Assembly (NCBI GenBank): GCA_907163375.1
Contig: CAJQUW010003042.1
Span: 62,001-126,000 of the forward strand
Origin: Prostheceraeus crozeri
Lineage: Eukaryota; Platyhelminthes; Polycladida; Euryleptidae
Length of the DNA: 64,000 bases
Direction: 5' to 3'
Both the position numbers and the translations under genes were made by a program. This document shows, piece after piece, positions 4,657-46,278 of the stretch. The notes beneath the pieces were generated by a model that saw only the letters and a list, made by a program, of their open reading frames with translations, was not told where the DNA came from and ran no database searches. Positions within the stretch are counted from its first letter, which is position 1. Each line of letters starts with the position of its first letter.

Positions 4657-5881
4657 ATAGCTGCCATTTCATTCAAAACCAGGAATCATCAGCAGATCGA
4701 CTTGACACTTCTCAACATGTCATGTAAACCCTTGCCCTTCATGGGGTGTTTTGACAAACGCACCCTGTTGAGAGCCTCTCCCCTGCCTATTTCCGAAAGC
4801 AGAGGTCCAAATTCAGAGCAAAATATGGTTATTATGCGTGATATGTTGTTTAAGTTTGTGTTTTGTAATCCGGTCTAATTTTGAAAACTTCGCAATTTTA
4901 AATTTTGAATATAAAACGTCGAAGTCTGAATAGAAACTTCATGGAAATTATCATTTTCTGTTAAAATTGACACAAGAACACTTTTTTTGATAAATTCTGA
5001 TAGCTTTGATATTAATAAGGACTTCTGAAAACATTCAAAGCGAAAATAGTAAATAGTGCAAATTCGACAAATCTGTCGTACATTTTTCAAATCCCATTGT
5101 GACGACAGCATTGAGCCGAAGTTATTCAGAATTGGTAGAAAGCTGTGGAATACGTAGGAAATAAGTTATCTAAAAGTTGGAGTTCCTATCTTCCTTCGGT
5201 TAGGAGCTAGACAGAATTTTCGTCCCCACCCGCGGTTCAGTTAAAGATTTTTCTAGCAAAATTCTAGCCAGAGAGCACGCATGGCCCTCAATCATGCCGG
5301 CCATGGGTTTCCTTGCAAAGTGCTCACAGGCTAACTCCTGAATTTTCCGACTTGGTTAGTGAGCGCAGCGGGTGTACAATCGAGCAACATCCTAGGCTGT
5401 TCGTAAAACTATGAAATTATTGTATACTTTATGACGAACTTTTCATAACAACAATTATAAATGCCGCTACAAGCCGAGGCGTAACTGTTGCCGTCTGTAA
5501 CCGCATGCAACCTCCTGGCTATGTCTCTCTCTATGCATCCGTTACATGTCGGCTGTTAAATATTCACATGCTGACTGAAAACGAAGGACAGCATCGATGT
5601 TCGTTTTAACAGTCTTGAACAAGATAACGAATCTCTTGGCTCTGTCGGAATGATTTTCGAATGTTTCATGAATTGTTTTTGTCATGTGATTTTTGAAATG
5701 AAAAATGAGCTAATATTGCGTGTGCAGATTCAAGTAGTTCAAGATCAACCATATTTGAGAAAACTCCAAAGATAGTAATCGAATAAAAGCCAATAAAATT
5801 AAATTTGTTCATAAAAAGGTTCATATTTACGTTATAAATGAAAATAGAGATAGAAAAATAGAATCTGCACTATAAATATCG
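4657..5881. other. No gene recognised
   Basis: I see no supported gene or repeat boundary. The short minus-strand frame 4875-5111 is Phe/Ile-rich, as expected from chance reading of AT-rich DNA. Confidence 0.4.
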
Positions 5882-6089
5882 CTACTGCAAGTTGTTTATC
5901 CCTCCAGTCTTCTGAAAATAGACTTTCTGTAACTGCGCCTTTCTTTTAACTAGTTCAGAGATTCCCACTGTTGAAGAAATATACTTGTTATGCATACGGA
6001 AGAGGAATAAAGCCAACAAGATGAGTTGCGACATTTTGACGTCATCAAAAACAAAAGAACCAGTCGCTTCTGCATTCAGGTGGTCATGG

Positions 6090-6578
6090 CTACCACAATG
6101 AAGCGGTGAGGCGGTGACTGCAGCGAGAAAGCAGACAGACAAAAACTTCCGCCATTTTCAAGAGAGTCACGTTATAATTGCTCACCAGTTGATTCTCAAA
6201 TATTCCGGGCTTAATTGCTCCTCTAACTGTTACCGACCAGTCGGCGTCGACTGTGTACTTCTGGAACTGACTGTAGAAAGTATCGAATCTCCATATACCC
6301 TCCGCGCAAGCTGCGAACATCTCTTCCAGTGGTGGCGTCTTTTCCTGGTTCTCGTCGTTCAATTTAGTTTCCGGTGGAAAAACAAATGCACCAGACAACC
6401 GACATGTCTGGAAACTAGACATAATAGATTGATGATTTTTACCTTTTTGTCGAGTGGAGCCTGTTTGAGGAAGTACGAACGTCTGCGGAGATTTTGTTGG
6501 TTGTTTGACCCAAATAGACAATTTGAACGACCCGTTGCTGCATTGATAGGAGCTATCTTGTTGCTGCATGTGTCGCAC
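6090..6578 (-). CDS. Possible coding exon(s), product unknown
   Basis: A 162-codon frame is open on the minus strand where the sequence is less AT-rich than its surroundings. The opposite strand is open over nearly the same span (6114-6605). The minus translation has the more protein-like composition (charged, mixed; for example EKTPPLEEMFAACAEG, then QKYTVDADWSVTVRG). It contains candidate splice signals: a donor-like CTG/GTGAGC after the residues ENQL, an internal AAG/GTAAAA and an acceptor-like TGTCTAG. I recognise no domain. It could be an exon of a host gene on the minus strand, an unrecognised transposon fragment, or chance. Confidence 0.22.
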   Translation of the reverse strand: MRHMQQQDSSYQCSNGSFKLSIWVKQPTKSPQTFVLPQTGSTRQKGKNHQSIMSSFQTCRLSGAFVFPPETKLNDENQEKTPPLEEMFAACAEGIWRFDTFYSQFQKYTVDADWSVTVRGAIKPGIFENQLVSNYNVTLLKMAEVFVCLLSRCSHRLTASLW

Positions 6579-6925
6579 TGTCGTATGGAGGCGTTCCTCG
6601 ACTAATACAGTTTCTTTTCCATGGTTTCTATATTCGCTTATGAAAGAGGTGCAGAACTAATTCGACTGTGCAGTGTGCACATGCATCGTCGCTGCGTAAA
6701 TACATGTAGATGCACATTACAATGTGAATCCTTGTGTGTATTGGTGCTACTGACACTTTGTTGTTTGATGCTATGGTATTTTTCAATTTCGAAGAGGCAA
6801 ACGGAATTGCAAATAAATGTAAGCAATACTTGACGTAGTGTCCTCATCGTTCTGCTATTTCATTCATAGAGATTGAGACAGAACGTCTGACAAGAGTTTA
6901 TGCACTTTGAGGTAGATAAATGAAT

Positions 6926-6939
6926 GGTATTGAATTTCC
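6926..6939. repeat. Target-site duplication, left side of Penelope-like insertion
   Basis: GGTATTGAATTTCC occurs here and again, exactly and in the same orientation, at 9791-9804, immediately outside the two ends of the inverted Penelope-like structure. The last three bases also belong to the inverted arm (microhomology at the junction). Confidence 0.85.
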
Positions 6940-7897
6940 ATACGACATTCAGAACACGGAAGTTCATACTAAATTTTATTGACTCCGATATACCACGCTG
7001 TCTCTTTCAGAGCGAACGACAGAATGAATTTCAATACAAGCGGTCAAAATCAGTTAAATCACGAACACAATTCATGGACATGGACATTAAGAGAATAAGA
7101 AACATAGAAATAGAAAGATTGAAGCCAAGTGATACATCATAATACTGTTTACTTTATGAGTAGTAAGAAGGTGAAGCGAAAATAAAAACAGAAGAGAAAA
7201 GTCACGGTATCAAGTGACAGGAGAAGACAAATTCTTCTGCACACACAGCGTGGGTTTAGTCAAACTTATGAGCACAGCTTCACCAATTCGCAGCTCGAAT
7301 TTGTTTCGGCACTGTTTTACCACTTTGAAGGCATTCCTTGAAGCTTTGTGAATGCAGGTCAGATGATGCTGAGTGATGGAGGAATTTGGAGGTAGTCTTG
7401 ATCTCGGACGCTGTTTCCCCTCCTCGCACCACTTCGGGATATGCTCCTTCGAGCGAGTCTCCAAGGTTCTCTCCGTCCTGCCCACATAGCTTGCTCCGCA
7501 AGCGCAGTCGTTGACAAGGGGTTTCTGGAAAGGAGGGATTGAGTCCTTAGGAGCGTTGCTTGCCACTTTTCGTGTACGGTACCAAGGGAGAACTTTGATG
7601 TGAAGATAAGTCCTCTCAACCATGGATTTGATCTTCCTTGCCTCGATGATTGAAGCCTCACCGTTGTACTGGATCCCGAACCGTAACTCCTTTTTCTCGA
7701 CAGTGCGGATGTTTCTGTCAGTTCTGAGGATGCTGCAGCTGTATTTGTCCACAAACCAATGTGGAAAGCCATTCTTGGACAGGATTGTTCGTAGGAAAAT
7801 GGCTTCCTCCTCGAAATGATCTCCCGAACAGATTCTGCGCCCGCGATCAAAGAGGCTTCTCACGAGATTCATTTTGTACTGTCTCGGGTAAAATGCG
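6937..7897 (-). repeat. Left arm of 961-bp inverted repeat (Penelope-like 3' part)
   Basis: This is the reverse complement of 8811-9771 with no insertion or deletion: paired positions always sum to 16708. I found only two substitutions, at 7562/9146 and 7889/8819, so identity is about 99.8%. It carries the 3' untranslated part and the C-terminal 229 codons of the retroelement in antisense. It lacks the last 19 bp of the right end. Confidence 0.9.
7210..7897 (-). pseudogene. Penelope-like C-terminal fragment in inverted arm
   Basis: This is the antisense copy of the C-terminal 229 codons of the plus-strand Penelope-like protein: thumb/linker and GIY-YIG endonuclease. Two residues differ from the plus-strand copy: Tyr instead of Cys at the first codons, from the 7889 change, and Ala instead of Val in RTRKVASNAPKD, from the 7562 change. 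The open frame runs 26 codons further upstream to 7983, but that part is antisense of the RT segment and has no meaning as protein. There is no RT domain, so it cannot be functional alone. Confidence 0.8.
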
Positions 7898-9498
7898 ATC
7901 GAATGCAATCTATCCTTGGTGACAATACAAAGTTCTTGAAGATGTCCTCGAACGTTGATTGGAACGATTCCCAGTCTCAACAATCACTCCTGAAACTTGT
8001 TCGTGAAATTGCAAGGTCTGAAGAGCTCCCTGAAGATGCTGAAAAGTTAATTCCAACCACTGCTATTTTTCCTCGGATGTACGGGCTTCCCAAAGTTCAC
8101 AAAGATGGGTTTCCTTTCCGCCCCATCCTTTCAATGACTGGCTCGACATATCACTCTCTAGCAAGGAAAATCGATGAATGGTTCCTCAAGCCAATCTTGC
8201 ACTTATTCAAGTATCACACAGTGAAAGATTCCTTTGAATTCGCAGAAAAGATGCGTTCCCTACCGATGGACGATAATCTGGTGATGCTGTCTGCCGATAT
8301 CAAAAGTCTTTTCACCAACATTCCGGTGGATGAGACGATCGACATTGTTTGCGATGCTTGGTATCGAACACAAAGAAGACCGCCTATAGTGGGTAAGAAG
8401 AGCATCAGCGAAGCAAATCTTCGAGCTCTTTTGAAGGCTGTAACCAAAGATATGCGATTCTCATTCGGTGGAGATCTCTACACTCAAGTTGATGGCCTCG
8501 CCATGGGTAGCCCTCTCAGTGGTTCCTTCGCTGACATTTTCGTGGGGTTCCATGAGCGTCATCTTCTCACTGGTGCTAACGATTTTGGCATTCATTCCTA
8601 CTGTCGGTACGTGGATGACATTCACATCGTCATAACTCGTGAGCAACAAGGCAGATTCGTGAGCGAACTTCGGAGGATGCACCGTGCCTTGACTTTCAGC
8701 ATGGAAGATTGCGATCATTTTTTGGACGTGAAGCTGGATAGAACGACCAACATGATGCAAACTTCAGTTTATCGGAAGCCAACCTTCACAGGATTGTATA
8801 TGAATTATAACGCATTTTGCCCGAGACAGTACAAAATGAATCTCGTGAGAAGCCTCTTTGATCGCGGGCGCAGAATCTGTTCGGGAGATCATTTCGAGGA
8901 GGAAGCCATTTTCCTACGAACAATCCTGTCCAAGAATGGCTTTCCACATTGGTTTGTGGACAAATACAGCTGCAGCATCCTCAGAACTGACAGAAACATC
9001 CGCACTGTCGAGAAAAAGGAGTTACGGTTCGGGATCCAGTACAACGGTGAGGCTTCAATCATCGAGGCAAGGAAGATCAAATCCATGGTTGAGAGGACTT
9101 ATCTTCACATCAAAGTTCTCCCTTGGTACCGTACACGAAAAGTGGTAAGCAACGCTCCTAAGGACTCAATCCCTCCTTTCCAGAAACCCCTTGTCAACGA
9201 CTGCGCTTGCGGAGCAAGCTATGTGGGCAGGACGGAGAGAACCTTGGAGACTCGCTCGAAGGAGCATATCCCGAAGTGGTGCGAGGAGGGGAAACAGCGT
9301 CCGAGATCAAGACTACCTCCAAATTCCTCCATCACTCAGCATCATCTGACCTGCATTCACAAAGCTTCAAGGAATGCCTTCAAAGTGGTAAAACAGTGCC
9401 GAAACAAATTCGAGCTGCGAATTGGTGAAGCTGTGCTCATAAGTTTGACTAAACCCACGCTGTGTGTGCAGAAGAATTTGTCTTCTCCTGTCACTTGA
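7816..9498 (+). CDS. Penelope-like reverse transcriptase / GIY-YIG endonuclease (N-terminally truncated)
   Basis: The protein would copy element RNA into a nicked chromosomal target by target-primed reverse transcription, with the GIY-YIG domain as nickase. The open frame is 560 codons, but codons 1-28 are read from the inverted arm. True element protein starts near codon 29 (7900) with RMQSILGDNTKF. RT blocks in order: YGLPKVHK (89-96) with RPILS; SADIKSLFTNIP (159-170, catalytic Asp161); GLAMGSPLSGSFAD (227-240); YVDD (265-268, two catalytic Asp); FLDV (302-305). The endonuclease is CACGASYVGRTERTLETR (463-480, Arg480), then EH at 483-484, a His/Cys cluster at 509-515 (HHLTCIH) and Glu538 in RIGEAVLI. 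The N-terminal region before the RT, which full-length Penelope-like proteins have, is missing. The rest is unbroken and ends at a normal stop, so the copy is young but probably inactive. Confidence 0.88.
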   Translation: MISRTDSAPAIKEASHEIHFVLSRVKCDRMQSILGDNTKFLKMSSNVDWNDSQSQQSLLKLVREIARSEELPEDAEKLIPTTAIFPRMYGLPKVHKDGFPFRPILSMTGSTYHSLARKIDEWFLKPILHLFKYHTVKDSFEFAEKMRSLPMDDNLVMLSADIKSLFTNIPVDETIDIVCDAWYRTQRRPPIVGKKSISEANLRALLKAVTKDMRFSFGGDLYTQVDGLAMGSPLSGSFADIFVGFHERHLLTGANDFGIHSYCRYVDDIHIVITREQQGRFVSELRRMHRALTFSMEDCDHFLDVKLDRTTNMMQTSVYRKPTFTGLYMNYNAFCPRQYKMNLVRSLFDRGRRICSGDHFEEEAIFLRTILSKNGFPHWFVDKYSCSILRTDRNIRTVEKKELRFGIQYNGEASIIEARKIKSMVERTYLHIKVLPWYRTRKVVSNAPKDSIPPFQKPLVNDCACGASYVGRTERTLETRSKEHIPKWCEEGKQRPRSRLPPNSSITQHHLTCIHKASRNAFKVVKQCRNKFELRIGEAVLISLTKPTLCVQKNLSSPVT

Positions 9499-9771
9499 TA
9501 CCGTGACTTTTCTCTTCTGTTTTTATTTTCGCTTCACCTTCTTACTACTCATAAAGTAAACAGTATTATGATGTATCACTTGGCTTCAATCTTTCTATTT
9601 CTATGTTTCTTATTCTCTTAATGTCCATGTCCATGAATTGTGTTCGTGATTTAACTGATTTTGACCGCTTGTATTGAAATTCATTCTGTCGTTCGCTCTG
9701 AAAGAGACAGCGTGGTATATCGGAGTCAATAAAATTTAGTATGAACTTCCGTGTTCTGAATGTCGTATGGA
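8811..9771 (+). repeat. Right arm of 961-bp inverted repeat (Penelope-like 3' part)
   Basis: This is the direct-orientation partner of 6937-7897. It starts inside the RT/endonuclease linker (around ORF codon 333) and runs through the stop codon at 9496-9498 and the 3' untranslated region. The element continues 19 bp further, to 9790, before the target duplication. Confidence 0.9.
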
Positions 9772-9790
9772 GATTGACGTGCACCAAAGG

Positions 9791-9804
9791 GGTATTGAAT
9801 TTCC
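9791..9804. repeat. Target-site duplication, right side of Penelope-like insertion
   Basis: This is an exact 14-bp match to 6926-6939, directly after the 3' end of the element. Confidence 0.85.
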
Positions 9805-12800
9805 CTTCTATAACTATTGTAGCTTTTGAGAGTGACTATTGTTCAGTAATTGGAAAATGTTGGCTGCTAAATCCATTGAGGCGCTACTTTTTTACGGTTT
9901 TTTAATCTGCAACATTGCTTGTGGATGCTCGATGAAGCTATTATCCTTTGAATCTGTAGAAAGCATTAAGTGATCTAAGTGCCTAAAATATTCCCGGGAG
10001 TGCAGCTACCACGGGGTGACAGATGGAGTAGTATCAATACAAGGCAATTCTAATTCGCTTGATTCATGCATTAAAGAACAAGGTTATTCAGTCACGAATA
10101 AAATCGCAGATTTAAGGAATAGAAATAATGTCTTATGAGGAATATAAGAAATATCATTGGCTGCATTGGGTTATTTCATCGGTATTACGATGCAGGAAAA
10201 ATGCAAAAATCTCAATGGAAGGAGTACAATGACCCTTTTCGAATTCATCGGCAAATAATATTTCTGGATTCCTGAGCTTCATTCCAGTTCCTACAATTGC
10301 ATGCATTGCTCCTATTGCATTTCCCGTTAACGAACCTCATTCCCGTTATACAGTTCCCGTTCTCAAATGATGTTCCCATTATCGCTGCAATTCCCAATTC
10401 CTGAGCCTTATTCAATTCCAGTTCCCAAACCTAAAACTAACTGCGAAACCTAGGCCAGATTCCGCGATCCATCGATATGCGCATCAAAAACACTGCACTA
10501 TTTCAATTTTCGTTAAACCAGAATTCCGTAAGTCCTTCAGTTCCTCTTTAAAGAATCGACAATTTGAATAAAGCTCCGCAACTAAAACCGCAGCAGTCGA
10601 ACTTTCCCTTTCTTCTCTTTCTATATCTGTAAAATGGTGCAGTTATCAACTTTCAGACAAATTCTTGAAAAATACAAAGTTTGATTCAGTTTTTTTACTG
10701 AAACATGACAATTATTTACATGATTATGTGAAACAAAGTTGAGTGCTTGCTATTAGAGCTGGAACTGGTTGGGTATCTTAGGCGCGGATAGCTGACGGCA
10801 ATTAAATGTTCGCCAGTTGACGAATTTATCGACCAGTTTAATTAATAAAGATCTAATCCTGATTTTAGCATGGATGAACTCGCTAAACCAGTCAATTTAA
10901 GAAGTTGCCTCCTCTCTTGTAGTTAGCTTGCTAACCTATGTTTAAGAGAAGCTGAAGTATTTTGAAAAACTGGTACGCCGTATCATGCACGTTTCAACTG
11001 GGAAAACGATAGACATGACAGTCAAATCAGGAATCTTTATTCTCGCAGCTGTGAGTTGTGAGTGCTGCTAATGTTTTCATATAAGATAAGAATAGGTAAG
11101 ATTGTATGTTTACATGCTTTCAAAGATAAGTGATTGGACAAAGTCAGGGGATTAAGCGTATTGACTGCTGATAGATAGATTATGCAGGTAGGTAGTTGCC
11201 AAGATATTTTTCTCATTGACAGACCTCATTTAGAGTTTTCTTAATTTTTATGCCAAATTTTGCGTCTTCTAATCACTAACTCATCATCGGATGATTCAAC
11301 TCATCAATTCAACGTAGCAAAGTGCGTCAAGGTAATAAAGTTAAAAAAACAAGCTAATGACTAGTTACTTTTCAATAGGTACAAAATATGATTTAAAAGA
11401 AAATTTTTATATCCTAAAATGTCTGAAGAATGAATTGGCGAGTAAGTCGTTCTGTTCAAAATTATGTTTATCACTTATATATTGAAAAGATCCTATTTAA
11501 CAGTCTGCCCATTCAGATGATAAGAGGACAGGTCTGTTTCCAATCAAAATACCAGATCTAGCTAATAACACAGCGGGATTACGCAATCTAAGAGAATTAA
11601 TATTAGAAAACGTGAAATAGAATTGTACAAAATATATTATACTTACTTTTATTATACAAGAAACAGACAAGCAGTACGTCACGGTCTGCGTGGTTAGCAG
11701 AGCGTCAGAGCTACCCTCCTTTAGCTAGATTAGTGCTCTGCCTAATATCCTTCTCTCACATGTAATTTTTGCTAAATGTTGTTAAAGTTTTGTATTTTCT
11801 TGTGTTTAAAGACCTTCTCTATTTCAGATTTGAGTTACTGTACTAATACATTCAAATCAAAGCTGGCAAATGCTTTAGTATTGATTGCACCGTGATAACT
11901 TCATAGTCGGTTCACAATCATGTTGTTTTACGTATACACTTGCATCTCTACATGTACATGTGTTAGATGCTATATAGAAAGAAACCTGCTACTAACTGAG
12001 GCTGAGATGTGTGTGACTAAGCATCCATCCTTAAGTTTGACTGCAAGTGGATAGACAACAGATTTACGTATTGTATAATTGTTTATGAAAATGTGGGAAT
12101 TCACATCGGGACAACACCTTAAAACATACAGTTTACATTTGAGGCCCAATTGTACTGAAGCACTTGCTGTTAATGGGACAAATTTCATTCGACTCTATCC
12201 TGGAGAAGCAGTAAAACCTGCCTAATTTATGAAATGTTTCAAATAATTAATTGACAGCTGCTCATTTTTCTCTAGAACATGCGTCTTACAAAATCACAAC
12301 ATACCAAAACATACATGTACAGTATACATCTGATGGGGTAGATAAATGCTAGGAAAGGATGTCGTCTCCTTCCGTCCTTTCGTTAAAGTCTGTAATTTTC
12401 CCGATTATCCTGATGAATAATTGCGAGTAGTATAATATACACACAAAATTGAAACTACAAAGTCAAAGTTAAGTCCATTCTAATCTCAAGTAGAAATAAG
12501 TGTCAAATATCTTTGAAAGCAACATTTTTTTGCATAAAACAGATAACTGTTTTCTGGCCATATAATCTCCCTTACATCTCTGAAATCGACAAAAAGTGAA
12601 TTGCCTTTATTGTATGCCGTAACACCTGAATATTGTGTGTTAGTCTACGCAGACGAAATTTGTGGTCAGAAATTTCAGATGTCATTTCATCAGGCGAAGA
12701 TATTGATTGAGTGAAAGAGAGGTTGACGCTGATAAAAATCCGCAAGATAAGAAATCTTAAACTGTCTTAAGAAGAATAAATCACAAGGGAAATTAAATGC

Positions 12801-19530: not shown

Positions 19531-20051
19531 CACAGAATTAGATTGTTTAATCGTATCACTTTGCTAGAAGTGCAAACTGATTCAAACAATGGCATATGCA
19601 GGAACTTAATAAGTGGGCAAAAAGAAATTCCTAATACCTTACAGAGATAGGGAAAATAGTCGTGCGTCGCTTGCGGATTGTTCTGAATTCCTTCGAAATG
19701 CTCCAATCGCCACCACTCCTTCAGATTCGAAGAATTCAGATCATTGCGCAAAAGTTTTCTCGATAATGTTAGGTCCTTCGATCATTTTAAAAAAAGTTAG
19801 CAGGCGCATGAAAAAACGTTCACAAACTTCTCTGCAGAACTTGACATCGACTGTGTCTCTTTGCTGTGTGATCCGGTTGATAACAGTCACTGAAACTTTG
19901 CACAATTTGGCGTGTTTAATGTCGAACTGGCGGCTCATTGTCCGATTGCTATGGTATTTAGTCAGCAGATTGTGCCATTTCATTTACGTTACATGTTCCA
20001 ATGTTTCCCTTCTAGTCAAACGGAAGAAGAGACGACCTGTCTGATTCTGTG
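19531..20051 (+). mobile_element. MITE family A, copy A1
   Basis: The left end begins CACAGAATTAGA and the right end, reverse complemented, begins CACAGAATCAGA. It is flanked by a perfect 8-bp duplication CTTCAACC (19523-19530 and 20052-20059). Three more copies lie in this window (28629, 31369, 45775). Eight-base duplications are made by hAT and P-type transposases, but the terminal bases do not match the usual hAT pattern, so the superfamily is left open. On the minus strand it holds an 80-codon frame (19741-19983) that is also largely open in the other copies. Confidence 0.85.
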
Positions 20052-20059
20052 CTTCAACC

Positions 20060-26974: not shown

Positions 26975-27535
26975 AACCTGATTGTGAGGAGTAGTGATCC
27001 AGTCAGCGGCATCTAGGCCTCTATCCTGAGGAACAGTGATCCAGTCAGCGGCATCTAAGCCTTCATGGTGAGGAGATTGATCCAGTCAGCGCCATACAAG
27101 CCTCCATTGTGAGGAGTAGTTATCCTGTCAGCGGCATCCAAGCCTGCAAAGTGAGGAGCAAATGATCCAGTCAGCGGCATCCAAGCCTCTGTTGTGAGGA
27201 GCAAATGATCCAGTCAGCGGCATCCAAATCTCTATTGTGAGGAGTAGTTATCCAGTCAGCGGCATCTAGGCCTCCATTGTGAGGAGTAGTGATCCAGTCA
27301 GCGCCATCCAAGCCCCCATGGTGAGGAGTAGTGATCCAGTCAGCGGCATCTAAGCCTCCATGGTGGGTAGTAGTGATCCAGTCAGCGCCATACAAGCCTC
27401 CAATGTGAGGAGTAGTTATCCAGTCAGCGGCATCTAGGCCTCCATTGTGAGGAGTAGTGATCCAGTCAGCGCCATCCAAGCCCCCATGGTGAGGAGTAGT
27501 GATCCAGGCAGGGCCATCTAAGTCTCAATAGTCTG
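26975..27535. repeat. 42-bp tandem satellite, ~13 units
   Basis: The word TCCAGTCAGCG(G/C)CAT recurs at 26999, 27041, 27081, 27123, 27166, 27209, 27251, 27293, 27335, 27377, 27419, 27461 and 27503. Spacing is 42 bp with three exceptions (40, 43, 43). Each unit also contains GTGAGGAGTAGTGA and AAGCCTCCAT. From 27171 to 27479 the minus strand is open because 42 is divisible by three, giving a 14-residue repeat around ADWITTPHNGGLD. The upstream units break the frame, so coding is unlikely. Single decayed units lie near 27580 and 27635-27675. Confidence 0.92.
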
Positions 27536-28532: not shown

Positions 28533-28628
28533 CAGATAAAGTTACTTACAAGCAGAATATTGCTCTTACAATCCTTCTTAGTATGAAATATTAATGAATG
28601 AAAAATATCAACGCATAGCAGTTCGACC

Positions 28629-29153
28629 CACAGAATTAGATTGTTTAATCGTATCACTTTGATAGAAGTGCAAACTGATTCAAACAGATGGCGCATGCAG
28701 GAACTTAATAAGTGGGCAAAAAGAAATTTTCAATGCCTTAGAGATAGGAAAAATAGTCGTGCGTCGCTTGCGGATTGCTCTGAATTCCTTCAAAATGCTC
28801 CGATCCCTGCGATTGTTTCAGATTCGAGGAATTCAGATCATTGCGCAAAGCTTTTCTCGATCATGTTGGCCCCTCCGATCATTGTAAAAAAAGTTAGCAG
28901 GCGCATGAAAAAACGTTCACAAACTTCTCTGCAGAACTTGACATCGTCTGTGTCTCTTTGCTGTGTGATCCGGTTGATAACAGTCACTGAAACTTTGCAC
29001 AATTTGGCGTGTTCAATGTTGAACTGGCTGCTCATTGTTCGATTGCTATGGTATTATGTCAGCAGATTGTGGCAATCCATTTCACTTACGTTACATGTTC
29101 CAATGTTCTCTTTCTAGTTAAACAGAAGAAGAGACGACCTGTCTAATTCTGTG
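28629..29153 (+). mobile_element. MITE family A, copy A2
   Basis: It has the same termini as A1 (CACAGAATTAGA at both ends) and a perfect 8-bp duplication GTTCGACC at 28621-28628 and 29154-29161. It is in the same orientation as A1 and very similar throughout. Minus-strand frame 28838-29035 matches the A1 frame (HAKLCKVSVTVINRI, then VCERFFMRLLTF). It is non-autonomous, with no transposase domain recognised. Confidence 0.88.
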
Positions 29154-30915: not shown

Positions 30916-31368
30916 CAGTGGTTCCCAACCTTTTTATGCCTCAGTACACACGTGAGATCTTACACGTGCGCCGCGAACCACTCTCAGTCAAACTGAGATT
31001 TTGTAAGGCAAACTCACGTAATTTGAAAATCTGTGTTTCAAGATATCGATCTCTGTAGATCTCACGCAGATATCTACATGAATGCTATTTCACGAATTGA
31101 TGCGGTGTCAAATACATGTATCTACGATCAAATACAGGTTGTGGTTCGTTTTTGAAAAAAACGTAGCCTATATTATTTGTAAATACGTTTGGCTTTCCTT
31201 TGTTGAATGCAAATTTCTATGCCATAAGCATTTTCAAAATACGTAATTTTGCCGAGCTGAGCTTCAAGCAAAAATGCAGGGTATTGTTCTGTTGATTTCG
31301 ACCTGTCGGTCGCTCATAGATGTCATTGCATCGCCTGTCGCATTGATGTCCAAACAACTTGATACAAA

Positions 31369-31898
31369 CACCGAATTAGACAGGTCGACTCGTCTTCTGT
31401 TTGACTAGAAAGGAAACATTGGAACATGTACCGTTAATGAATTGGCACAATCTGCTGACTAAATATCATAGCAATCGAACAATGAGCAGCCAATTCAACA
31501 TTAAACACGCCAAATTGTGTAAAGTTTCAGTGACTGTTATCAACCGGATCACACATCAAAGAGACACAGACGATGTCAAGTTCTACAGGGAAGTTTGTGA
31601 ACGTTTTTCCATGCGCCTGCTAACTTTTTTAATAATGATCGGAAGGGCCAACATGATCGAGAAAAGCTTTGCGCAATGATCTGAATTCGTCGAATCTGAA
31701 GGAGTCGTGGCGATCGGAGCATTTTGAAGGAATTCAGAGCAATCCGCAAGCGACGCACGACTATTTTTCCTATCTCTGCAAGGTATTAAAAATTTTAATA
31801 AGTTTTAAATTTTTTTTAATAAGTTCCTGCATGTGCCATTATTTTGATTCAGTTTGCACTTCTAGCAAAGTGATGCGATTAAACAATCTAATTCTGTG
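31369..31898 (-). mobile_element. MITE family A, copy A3 (reverse orientation)
   Basis: This is the reverse-orientation copy of A1/A2, nested in the hAT-type element. Its right end is intact (reverse complement CACAGAATTAGA); the left end is CACCGAATTAGA. Flanks GATACAAA and GATACTTG share five of eight bases, so the duplication has decayed. It contains the longest version of the family frame: 92 codons on the plus strand at 31401-31679, beginning MTRKETLEHVPLMNWHNLLT. Confidence 0.8.
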
Positions 31899-38273: not shown

Positions 38274-39540
38274 TTGAAACGTCAAATTCAATTCAGCCAT
38301 ATTAAGATGGACCTGCTAGACCAAGCGCCTACCGCAATATTGGATTTTTCTGTCATTCCAGGCGGAATGATTTCAGGATTAAGTGGATCTGAAATAGACA
38401 AATTAATGAAGCAATATGAAACACCGCCGGACTGTGCAACAACATCACGATTTTCAATGCCGCAATCGGACGCAGCAATTCAAACATTGAAAAAAGACAG
38501 CACACCATTAGCGACTGTCCGTAGAAATAAATTGAGTGTCAACATATTCACTGAGTGGCAAATGAATTGGAAAAGCAAATAAGTGAGATCAAGCAGCCAG
38601 ATGCTCTTGATTATTGGTTCAGTAAATTCGCACTTGAAGTAAGGAAACGTGATGGCACACGATATCCGCGTGACAGTTTGGTTTCCATTATGGCGGGTTT
38701 GAATGCGACAATCAAAGACTACATCGGTCCGGTGAACATCTTCAAGGACGCAGCATTTACCAGAACGCAGGAGTCATTAGATCTATCGATGAAGCTGTCA
38801 ACCGCAGAAGGTGCTGGGATAAGCAAAAAGCAAGCTGAAGTCATTAGTGTAGAAGATGAAGAAAAGTTGTGGACTCATTCTTTTGGAGATACTGATCCGC
38901 AGAAACTCCAAGATACACTTTTCTACCTAAATGGACTGCACTTATCAATGCGCAGTGGACAAGAACATCGTTGCTTGTCAACGAGCCAATTAGAAATAAA
39001 GCATGATCCTCCTTCGCTTATCTATTCAGAAAGTGTAGCAAAACGTACAATGGCGGACTTAAACAGAGAAGAATCGAACCAAAAAAAGTAGTTCACATTG
39101 ACAACGTTTACTACAATAATCCTCAGCGCTCTCATGTCAGACTTTATGAAAAGTATCTATCAGTTCGACCGAAGACAACTGAAGTATTTTCCCTCAGACC
39201 ACTGAAAAACTATTCGACTTTTTGGTACAGCGCGGTACCGATTGGGAACAATACCCTGAGAAGCTTTATGAAACGAATTTGCAAAGCATCTGGTGTTGAA
39301 GGATATAAAACAAACCACAGCTGCACGCAACATGTACAACCAGACTGTACGAATCCGGCTGCGATGACCACGGAATAATGAGAAGAACTGGTCCTAGATC
39401 AAGTGATGGACTGAAACCTTATAAAATAATGGGTGAAATTCATGATTTCAGCAGCAGCGCTCAAATTGACAACAGGCCGGGATCACTTAATCTCAGTGTA
39501 AACAATTCAAAAAAAAATCATATCGACAGCGTCATACATG
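38274..39540 (+). pseudogene. Crypton-type tyrosine recombinase (DUF3504-like), frameshifted
   Basis: Three frames in succession encode the parts of the DUF3504/Crypton recombinase seen in KCTD1-, ZMYM- and QRICH1-related proteins. First: 38274-38582 (TPLATVRRNKLSVNIFTEW). Second: about 38555-39050 (ALDYWFSKFALEVRKRDGT, then DTLFYLNGLHLSMRSGQEHR with the first catalytic Arg). Third: about 39050-39310 (YNGGLKQRRIEPKKVVHI, then TFWYSAVPIGNNTL and GYKTNHS with a catalytic His). A final frame gives TRLYESGCDD, IMRRTGPRSSDG and the Tyr of KPYK. I infer at least three frameshifts. Two active-site positions are changed: Arg to His in LHAT, and His to Pro in GPRSS. It is therefore a dead copy. A decayed host-gene retrocopy is possible but no zinc-finger part is seen. 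Confidence 0.78.
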
Positions 39541-45774: not shown

Positions 45775-46270
45775 CACAGAATCAGACAGGTCGCTTCTTA
45801 GTCTGTTTGACTAGAAGGGAAACATTGGAACATGTAACGTTAATGAAATGGCACAATCCTTCTGACATAATACCATAGCAATCGAACAATGAGCAACCAG
45901 TTCAACATTAAAACTGTTATCAACCGGATCACACAGCAAAGAGACACAGATGATGTCAAATTCTACAGGGAAGTATGTGAACGATTTTTCGAGCGTTCGT
46001 TAAATTTTTAAATGATGATCGGAGGACCTAACATTATAGAGAAAACGTTTGCGCAATGATCTGAATTCTTCAAATCTGAAGGAATCGTGGCGATTGGAGC
46101 ATTTTGAAGGAATTCAGAGCAATCCGCAAGCGACGCACGACTATTTTTCCTATCTCTGTAAGGTATTGAAAATTTCTTTTTGCCCACTTATCAAGTTCCT
46201 GCATGTGCCATCGTTTTGAATGAGTTTGCACTTCTAGCAAAGTGATACGCTTAAGCAATCTAATTCTGTG
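45775..46270 (-). mobile_element. MITE family A, copy A4 (reverse orientation, internal deletion)
   Basis: Termini are CACAGAATCAGA and, reverse complemented, CACAGAATTAGA. Flanks GTAAGAAC (45767-45774) and GCAAGAAC (46271-46278) match at 7 of 8 bases. At 496 bp it is shorter than the other copies because a piece around 45910 (the AKLCKVSV-encoding part) is deleted. Minus-strand frame 46070-46366 runs across the left end of the family into flanking DNA and is not a gene. Confidence 0.85.
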
Positions 46271-46278
46271 GCAAGAAC

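What the first reader, a model, noticed from the sequence alone, without database searches (positions are those of the whole stretch)
6926..9804. Penelope-like insertion with a head-to-head inverted 961-bp partial copy inside one 14-bp target duplication
The boundaries are exact: GGTATTGAATTTCC lies on both sides, the arms are collinear without indels, and the RT segment is unique between them. This is not ordinary LINE-style twin priming, because the inverted segment duplicates the 3' part instead of merely flipping the 5' part. It implies that two transcripts, or one transcript copied twice, were joined during a single target-primed integration. Inverted terminal copies are known for Penelope-like elements, but a complete case with a clean target duplication and near-identical arms is useful for working out the mechanism.
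Basis: partly seen in the sequence, partly recalled or inferred. Interest (0 to 1): 0.75.

Follow-up and report, generated by a model that had tools for sequence, protein, structure and literature searches.

The report
Penelope-like element inserted as inverted double
A mobile element sits in this genome as two copies joined head-to-head between one short repeat of the target; this is a usual habit of Penelope-like elements, and its relatives here suggest that copying was started from both broken ends of the target.

Summary
Window 6940-7897 is an inverted partner of 8811-9768 (958 nt, 2 mismatches, no indels); 7898-8810 is single; GGTATTGAATTTCC flanks the whole. It is a 5'-truncated Penelope-like element (PLE).

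It is no oddity here. The 25 best matches of its 3' UTR make about 17 insertions: 6 head-to-head doubles, 9 single copies, 1 direct tandem, 1 rearranged locus (a capped list). Two sister-family doubles also fit. These 8 doubles share 12-14 nt flank words. For two doubles other than the window's, relatives of the target show the site uninterrupted. In 8 of 8, exactly one outer end runs into the 'tail'; the other starts further inside. Arms share private variants in 6 of 6 doubles compared. Junctions show no significant palindrome excess.

Best explanation: two-sided target-primed reverse transcription, each target strand priming a cDNA, the two cDNA ends then joined. The structure is published as typical for Penelope (PMC3846280), and both-strand priming from two start sites was shown in vitro (PMC11167929). 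A new member of a known kind; the set argues against self-priming in this family.

The parts
6926..6939 (.). left copy of the 14-nt target duplication GGTATTGAATTTCC
6940..7897 (-). inverted, shorter arm (958 nt); its element 3' end faces out and stops at the inner start site (GTCGTAT on the element strand), without tail
7897..7897 (.). head-to-head junction; the two arms overlap by 1 nt here
7898..8810 (+). single-copy part of the longer arm, reverse transcriptase region, 5'-truncated (other copies extend further 5')
8811..9768 (+). 3' part of the longer arm, partner of the inverted arm
9769..9790 (+). tail: 22 nt beyond the inner start site, present at this end only
9791..9804 (.). right copy of the target duplication
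7897..9498 (+). element part of the open frame (the open frame itself begins at 7795, in the inverted arm): RT domain and C-terminal YVG motif of the endonuclease; it carries deletions shared by both arms

Best explanation
A Penelope-like element inserted by two-sided target-primed reverse transcription. Shown here: both outer ends are element 3' ends; a single 14-nt duplication encloses both arms; the arms are 5'-truncated at different points, share private variants, and start at two different 3' points. Inferred: the element's endonuclease made a staggered break; each of the two target 3' ends primed its own cDNA on RNA of one source sequence (one RNA copied twice, or two sister RNAs), one at the distal (tail) start site and one at the inner site; the two cDNA 3' ends were joined head-to-head by end joining and the other strands filled in. 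Single copies with the same kind of duplication would be the same reaction with one end primed.
For: 8 doubles (6 main family, 2 sister family) with shared flank words of 12-14 nt, like the 10-15 nt of 8 of 9 singles. Uninterrupted sites for two doubles: 7 of 7 fetched relatives of the L016 target and 5 of 5 of the L010 target. Exactly one outer end reaches into the tail in 8 of 8 doubles; a fold-back copy of one cDNA should repeat the same 3' end. Both arms share variants found in no other compared copy in 6 of 6 main-family doubles. Junctions have overlaps of 1-5 nt or fillers of 1-9 nt, and stems at 8 junctions average 3.75 bp against 3.48 for 6000 random joins, P 0.26. No tail-to-tail pair among the main-family matches. 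PMC11167929 (main text read): a PLE protein cleaves and extends both target strands from two adjacent start sites, and the stretch between them is the tail.
Against: PMC11167929 saw no difference in start site between the two strands, whereas all 8 doubles here are asymmetric; two-sided priming alone does not explain that. Two of the 8 junctions (L010, L018) have 6-bp stems, a size reached by 3.3% of random joins, so self-priming is not excluded for these. For L013 and L016 the two arms differ more from each other than one of them does from the nearest other copy, and for L029 equally. L016 and L029 share only one private variant each. Four more head-to-head-like loci (L015, L020, L033, L038) show no clear duplication. 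Target priming itself was not observed.
Confidence: 0.7

Rival explanations
1. Self-priming: a single template folds back near its end and copies itself, giving the inverted arm; PMC3846280 proposes this on an antisense template.
For: Arms nearly identical and sharing private variants is also what self-copying gives. L010 and L018 junctions have 6-bp stems. PMC3846280 reports palindromes at inverted junctions in rotifer elements (Discussion read).
Against: The two outer ends differ in 8 of 8 doubles; no significant palindrome excess over random joins (P 0.26); fillers at 2 or 3 junctions.
Confidence: 0.13
2. One cDNA is primed at the target in the usual way; the inverted arm is a second, ready-made cDNA or element fragment that is ligated into the gap by end joining.
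For: Junction overlaps and fillers look like end joining.
Against: A captured fragment should have no fixed end or orientation at the target side; inner ends recur at GTCGTAT in 4 of 8 doubles (window, L013, L016, L018) and within 1-2 nt in L036, and all 8 are head-to-head.
Confidence: 0.09
3. Two independent insertions, or a later inverted duplication of a resident copy.
For: None found; in principle a nested insertion gives inverted neighbours.
Against: One target duplication encloses both arms and the sibling empty sites show the word, or a variant of it, once; the arms share private variants.
Confidence: 0.04
4. Assembly artefact at a palindrome.
For: Inverted repeats are prone to misassembly and no reads were available.
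Against: The arms differ at 2 sites, in length and in outer end; each end has its own single-copy flank and the exact duplication; the same architecture recurs at 7 other loci with other target words.
Confidence: 0.03

Closest known systems
Penelope elements of Adineta vaga, e.g. Pen2a_Av (PMC3846280; passages, Discussion)
   Same: Head-to-head inverted terminal copy, short target duplication (9 bp there), a 31-bp tail optionally present at one of the inverted ends, the inverted copy shorter than the direct one; pLTR contains the start of the ORF.
   Different: Here the duplication is 12-14 bp and the inverted arm is 958 nt rather than a pLTR of about 200 bp; no palindrome excess at junctions; the window copy is 5'-truncated and has no pLTR-ORF-pLTR layout, though sibling L009 does.
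PAc, a Poseidon-type PLE of Anolis carolinensis studied in vitro (PMC11167929; main text)
   Same: Two adjacent reverse-transcription start sites near the start of the next unit's ORF define the tail; both target strands are cleaved and extended; AT-rich targets (GC of the shared words here 0.26, window 0.37).
   Different: PAc has a hammerhead ribozyme; none was found here. PAc showed no strand difference in start sites; here each double has one of each.
LINE-1 twin priming (5' inversion; recalled, not read)
   Same: The second target end primes a second cDNA and the ends are joined.
   Different: There one RNA is split between the two cDNAs, so the inverted part does not duplicate the 3' part; here 958 nt are duplicated.

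Membership tests
Penelope-like elements, endonuclease-bearing | reverse transcriptase related to known PLE proteins | tested here: met
   RVT_1 at E 6.8e-7; 5712 related proteins at E <= 0.001, 120 listed, best 59% identity; RT residues aligned in 8 sequences. That the relatives are PLE is recalled; few carry names.
Penelope-like elements, endonuclease-bearing | C-terminal GIY-YIG endonuclease | tested here: inconclusive
   No Pfam hit for the nuclease even at E 5. A YVGRTER...EH motif is aligned with relatives; its reading as GIY-YIG is from recall. The window copy lacks 9 nt just upstream of it.
Penelope-like elements, endonuclease-bearing | partial tandem with pseudo-LTR that includes the ORF start | tested here: met
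   Sibling L009: a partial unit runs through the tail into an 832-codon open frame. Not present in the window copy, which is 5'-truncated.
Penelope-like elements, endonuclease-bearing | optional tail at the 3' end | tested here: met
   Full tail in 8 of 9 singles; one end of each of 8 doubles, only 14 nt of it in L013.
Penelope-like elements, endonuclease-bearing | hammerhead ribozyme (reported for many PLE) | tested here: inconclusive
   No Rfam hammerhead match in window 6000-11000 or in L009, L010, L012, L013. A loose motif pattern gave hits in the coding region that were not assessed.
LINE-type twin-primed insertion | inverted 5' segment that does not overlap the direct 3' segment | tested here: not met
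   958 nt of overlap.

The most novel reading that the evidence does not exclude
Integration is an ordered, asymmetric double copying of one RNA: one target strand primes at the distal (tail) start site and the other at the inner site, so that every double has exactly one tail. The one-tail rule (8 of 8; 0.004 if ends were independent at one half) and the shared private variants (6 of 6) would be its genomic signature.
Probability: 0.33. Interest if true: 0.65.

Novelty: new member of a known kind. Interest (0 to 1): 0.4.

Why it matters
How Penelope-like elements integrate is still open. This genome holds a young family in which singles and doubles with clean ends can be compared. The set favours two independently primed cDNAs over self-priming for this family, and the one-tail rule is a sharp prediction for an in vitro system that already exists.

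Tried and rejected
Empty allele of the window's own site: both flank queries match only themselves in G000. The L018 flank matched repeats that end before the insertion point. Flanks of L029 and L013 were asked for and never answered. Hammerhead ribozyme: no Rfam match. Endonuclease by Pfam: no hit. Solved structures: two weak hits, E 0.063 and 0.19, both to bacterial defence reverse transcriptases. Palindromes at junctions: no significant excess. (7 junctions, P 0.24) had near-identical joins in its null; (8 junctions, P 0.26) left them out.

Rows left out: L015, L020, L033 and L038 are head-to-head-like but without a clear duplication and are in no count of doubles. L019, L023, L025-L027, L031, L032 and L037 (diverged or damaged copies) are in no count of singles. 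L009's 8-nt shared word equals the longest chance word and is not counted as a duplication. L030 (arms 14% apart) and L036 (fetched later) are not in the arm-origin comparison. The large arm-private counts of L010 and L018 come mostly from alignment gaps and were not used.

Full report
Observation. The window holds an inverted pair, 6940-7897 and 8811-9768, 958 nt each, with 2 mismatches and no indel, around a single segment 7898-8810. GGTATTGAATTTCC stands at 6926-6939 and 9791-9804 and nowhere else in the window. The right arm carries 22 nt more at its outer end (9769-9790) than the left.

What it is. The right-hand copy encodes a 5'-truncated reverse transcriptase. Named relatives in the listed hits include flatworm proteins and one from Chrysogorgia. 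A C-terminal CACGASYVGRTER...EH motif is shared with relatives; I read it, from recall, as the GIY-YIG nuclease of Penelope-like elements, but Pfam did not score it. Other copies in the same genome (G000, 2.05 Gb, 14165 contigs, unnamed) extend further 5'. One, L009, is a direct partial tandem in which the 3' part of one unit runs through the tail into an 832-codon open frame, like published PLE pseudo-LTRs.

Census. A search with window 9500-9790 gives 42 matches (104 candidates, 40 scored, so a capped list); 25 of them have 94% identity or more. These 25 fall into 6 head-to-head doubles (window, L010, L013, L016, L018, L029; 12 ends), 9 single copies (L011, L012, L014, L017, L021, L022, L024, L028, L035), one direct tandem (L009; 2 ends) and one rearranged locus (C5012, L015; 2 ends, perhaps two insertions). 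None of these is a tail-to-tail pair. Two sister-family doubles, L030 and L036, were also read. Four further head-to-head-like structures (L015, L020, L033, L038) have no clear duplication and are not counted.

Ends. The 8 doubles have shared flank words of 12-14 nt. 8 of the 9 singles have 10-15 nt; L014 has none. These words can include a few nt of chance overlap with the element. In a control on 20 insertions, 14 had words of 10 or more and the longest in 380 mismatched flank pairs was 8. L016 lies in a repeat: in 7 of 7 fetched relatives the two flanks meet with an overlap of 13 nt (six) or 11 nt (one, L048), that is, the word stands once; two of the seven (L044, L048) have point differences in or beside the word. 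For L010, 5 of 5 relatives show the same with overlaps of 11-12 nt; 4 of the 5 have a point difference within the word and the other (L053) one at its edge. The window's own flanks are single-copy, so this test could not be made there.

Two start points. In each of the 8 doubles one outer end reaches into the tail and the other does not. L013 has only 14 nt of the tail at that end. The ends without tail lie at GTCGTAT in the window, L013, L016 and L018, within 1-2 nt of it in L036, and further inside in L010, L029 and L030. 8 of 9 singles have the full tail; L014 stops a few nt past the inner site, and the tandem L009 ends at the inner site. If ends were independent with probability one half, 8 of 8 would have probability 0.004. 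In L009 the element continues past the tail as AAAGGAGTATTTATT; the window's target word begins GGTATT, so the target 3' end could have paired with the RNA there (by inspection; an inference).

One source. The arms of one double differ by 0.21% (window), 0.5 (L010), 1.35 (L013), 0.81 (L016), 0.76 (L018) and 0.38% (L029), against medians of 1.55-2.17% to other insertions. In L013 and L016 the arms differ more from each other than one of them does from the nearest other copy, and in L029 equally. In 6 of 6 main-family doubles both arms share at least one variant found in no other compared copy: 4 substitutions, a 9-nt and a 1-nt deletion in the window; 11 in L010; 1 and a 7-nt deletion in L013; 1 in L016; 2 in L018; 1 in L029. 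Either one RNA was copied twice, or sister RNAs of one locus were used, or one arm was copied from the other. Because the window's 9-nt deletion lies just upstream of the YVG motif in both arms, the source RNA may have encoded a poor nuclease and been inserted by protein from another copy (inference).

Junctions. Overlap of the arms: window 1, L016 5, L030 4, L036 1 nt. Fillers: 9 nt in L010 and 3 in L018. L029 has 1 nt of overlap or of filler, depending on the copy used as reference. L013 is unclear because its long arm is the copy used as the 5' reference. Hairpin stems at the 8 junctions average 3.75 bp against 3.48 for 6000 random joins, P 0.26. Two of the eight (L010, L018) have 6-bp stems, a size that 3.3% of random joins reach; this is the best evidence here for self-priming in some cases.

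Mechanism. Head-to-head arms whose outer ends are both element 3' ends, one enclosing duplication, different 5' truncations, two different 3' starts and end-joining-like junctions are what two cDNAs primed from the two target ends would leave. PMC11167929 (main text read) shows a PLE protein that cleaves and extends both target strands from two adjacent start sites that bound the tail; it saw no strand difference in start site. PMC3846280 (passages and Discussion) calls the inverted arrangement with a short duplication typical, notes the tail at one of the inverted ends, and proposes self-priming on an antisense template because of palindromes at junctions. This family shows no significant palindrome excess, and its two ends differ, which a fold-back copy should not give. 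In seven searches of the open library (listings) I saw no title or abstract that reports a count of tails at both ends of PLE doubles; most subscription papers are not held.

Verdict. Its worth lies in the comparative set, which makes the open question of PLE integration testable.

Noticed in passing
L009 (C220:10500-19500), 6082-6999 and 7062-7628: The tandem copy L009 lies among AT-rich open frames of unknown kind; Pfam gives only weak hits below cut-off (apolipoprotein, baculovirus PEP C-terminus). Possibly a virus-like or mobile stretch.
   Followed up: partly
G000:C6689:878679-889899 around L016: The L016 double sits in one of two inverted repeats of over 900 bp about 10 kb apart; similar inverted pairs recur on many contigs at 92-97% identity, perhaps a transposon with long terminal inverted repeats.
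   Followed up: partly
window 9190-9200 and 7508-7518: A 9-nt deletion just upstream of the YVG motif is present in both arms and in none of the 12 other compared sequences that cover the site, one of which has a neighbouring gap; the source RNA may have needed another copy's protein.
   Followed up: partly
window 26981-27526: Tandem array with a 42-nt unit, 13 copies, 83% matches.
   Followed up: no
window 38555-39091: Open frame with DUF3504 and QRICH1 matches, perhaps part of a transposon-derived or host gene.
   Followed up: no
window 19584-20054, 28621-29081, 31366-31795, 45913-46278: Four related dispersed copies in both orientations, 87-94% alike.
   Followed up: no
L010 about 5022-5030: The 9-nt filler at the L010 junction contains ACATTT, also part of its target word: perhaps copied from the target, perhaps chance.
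   Followed up: no
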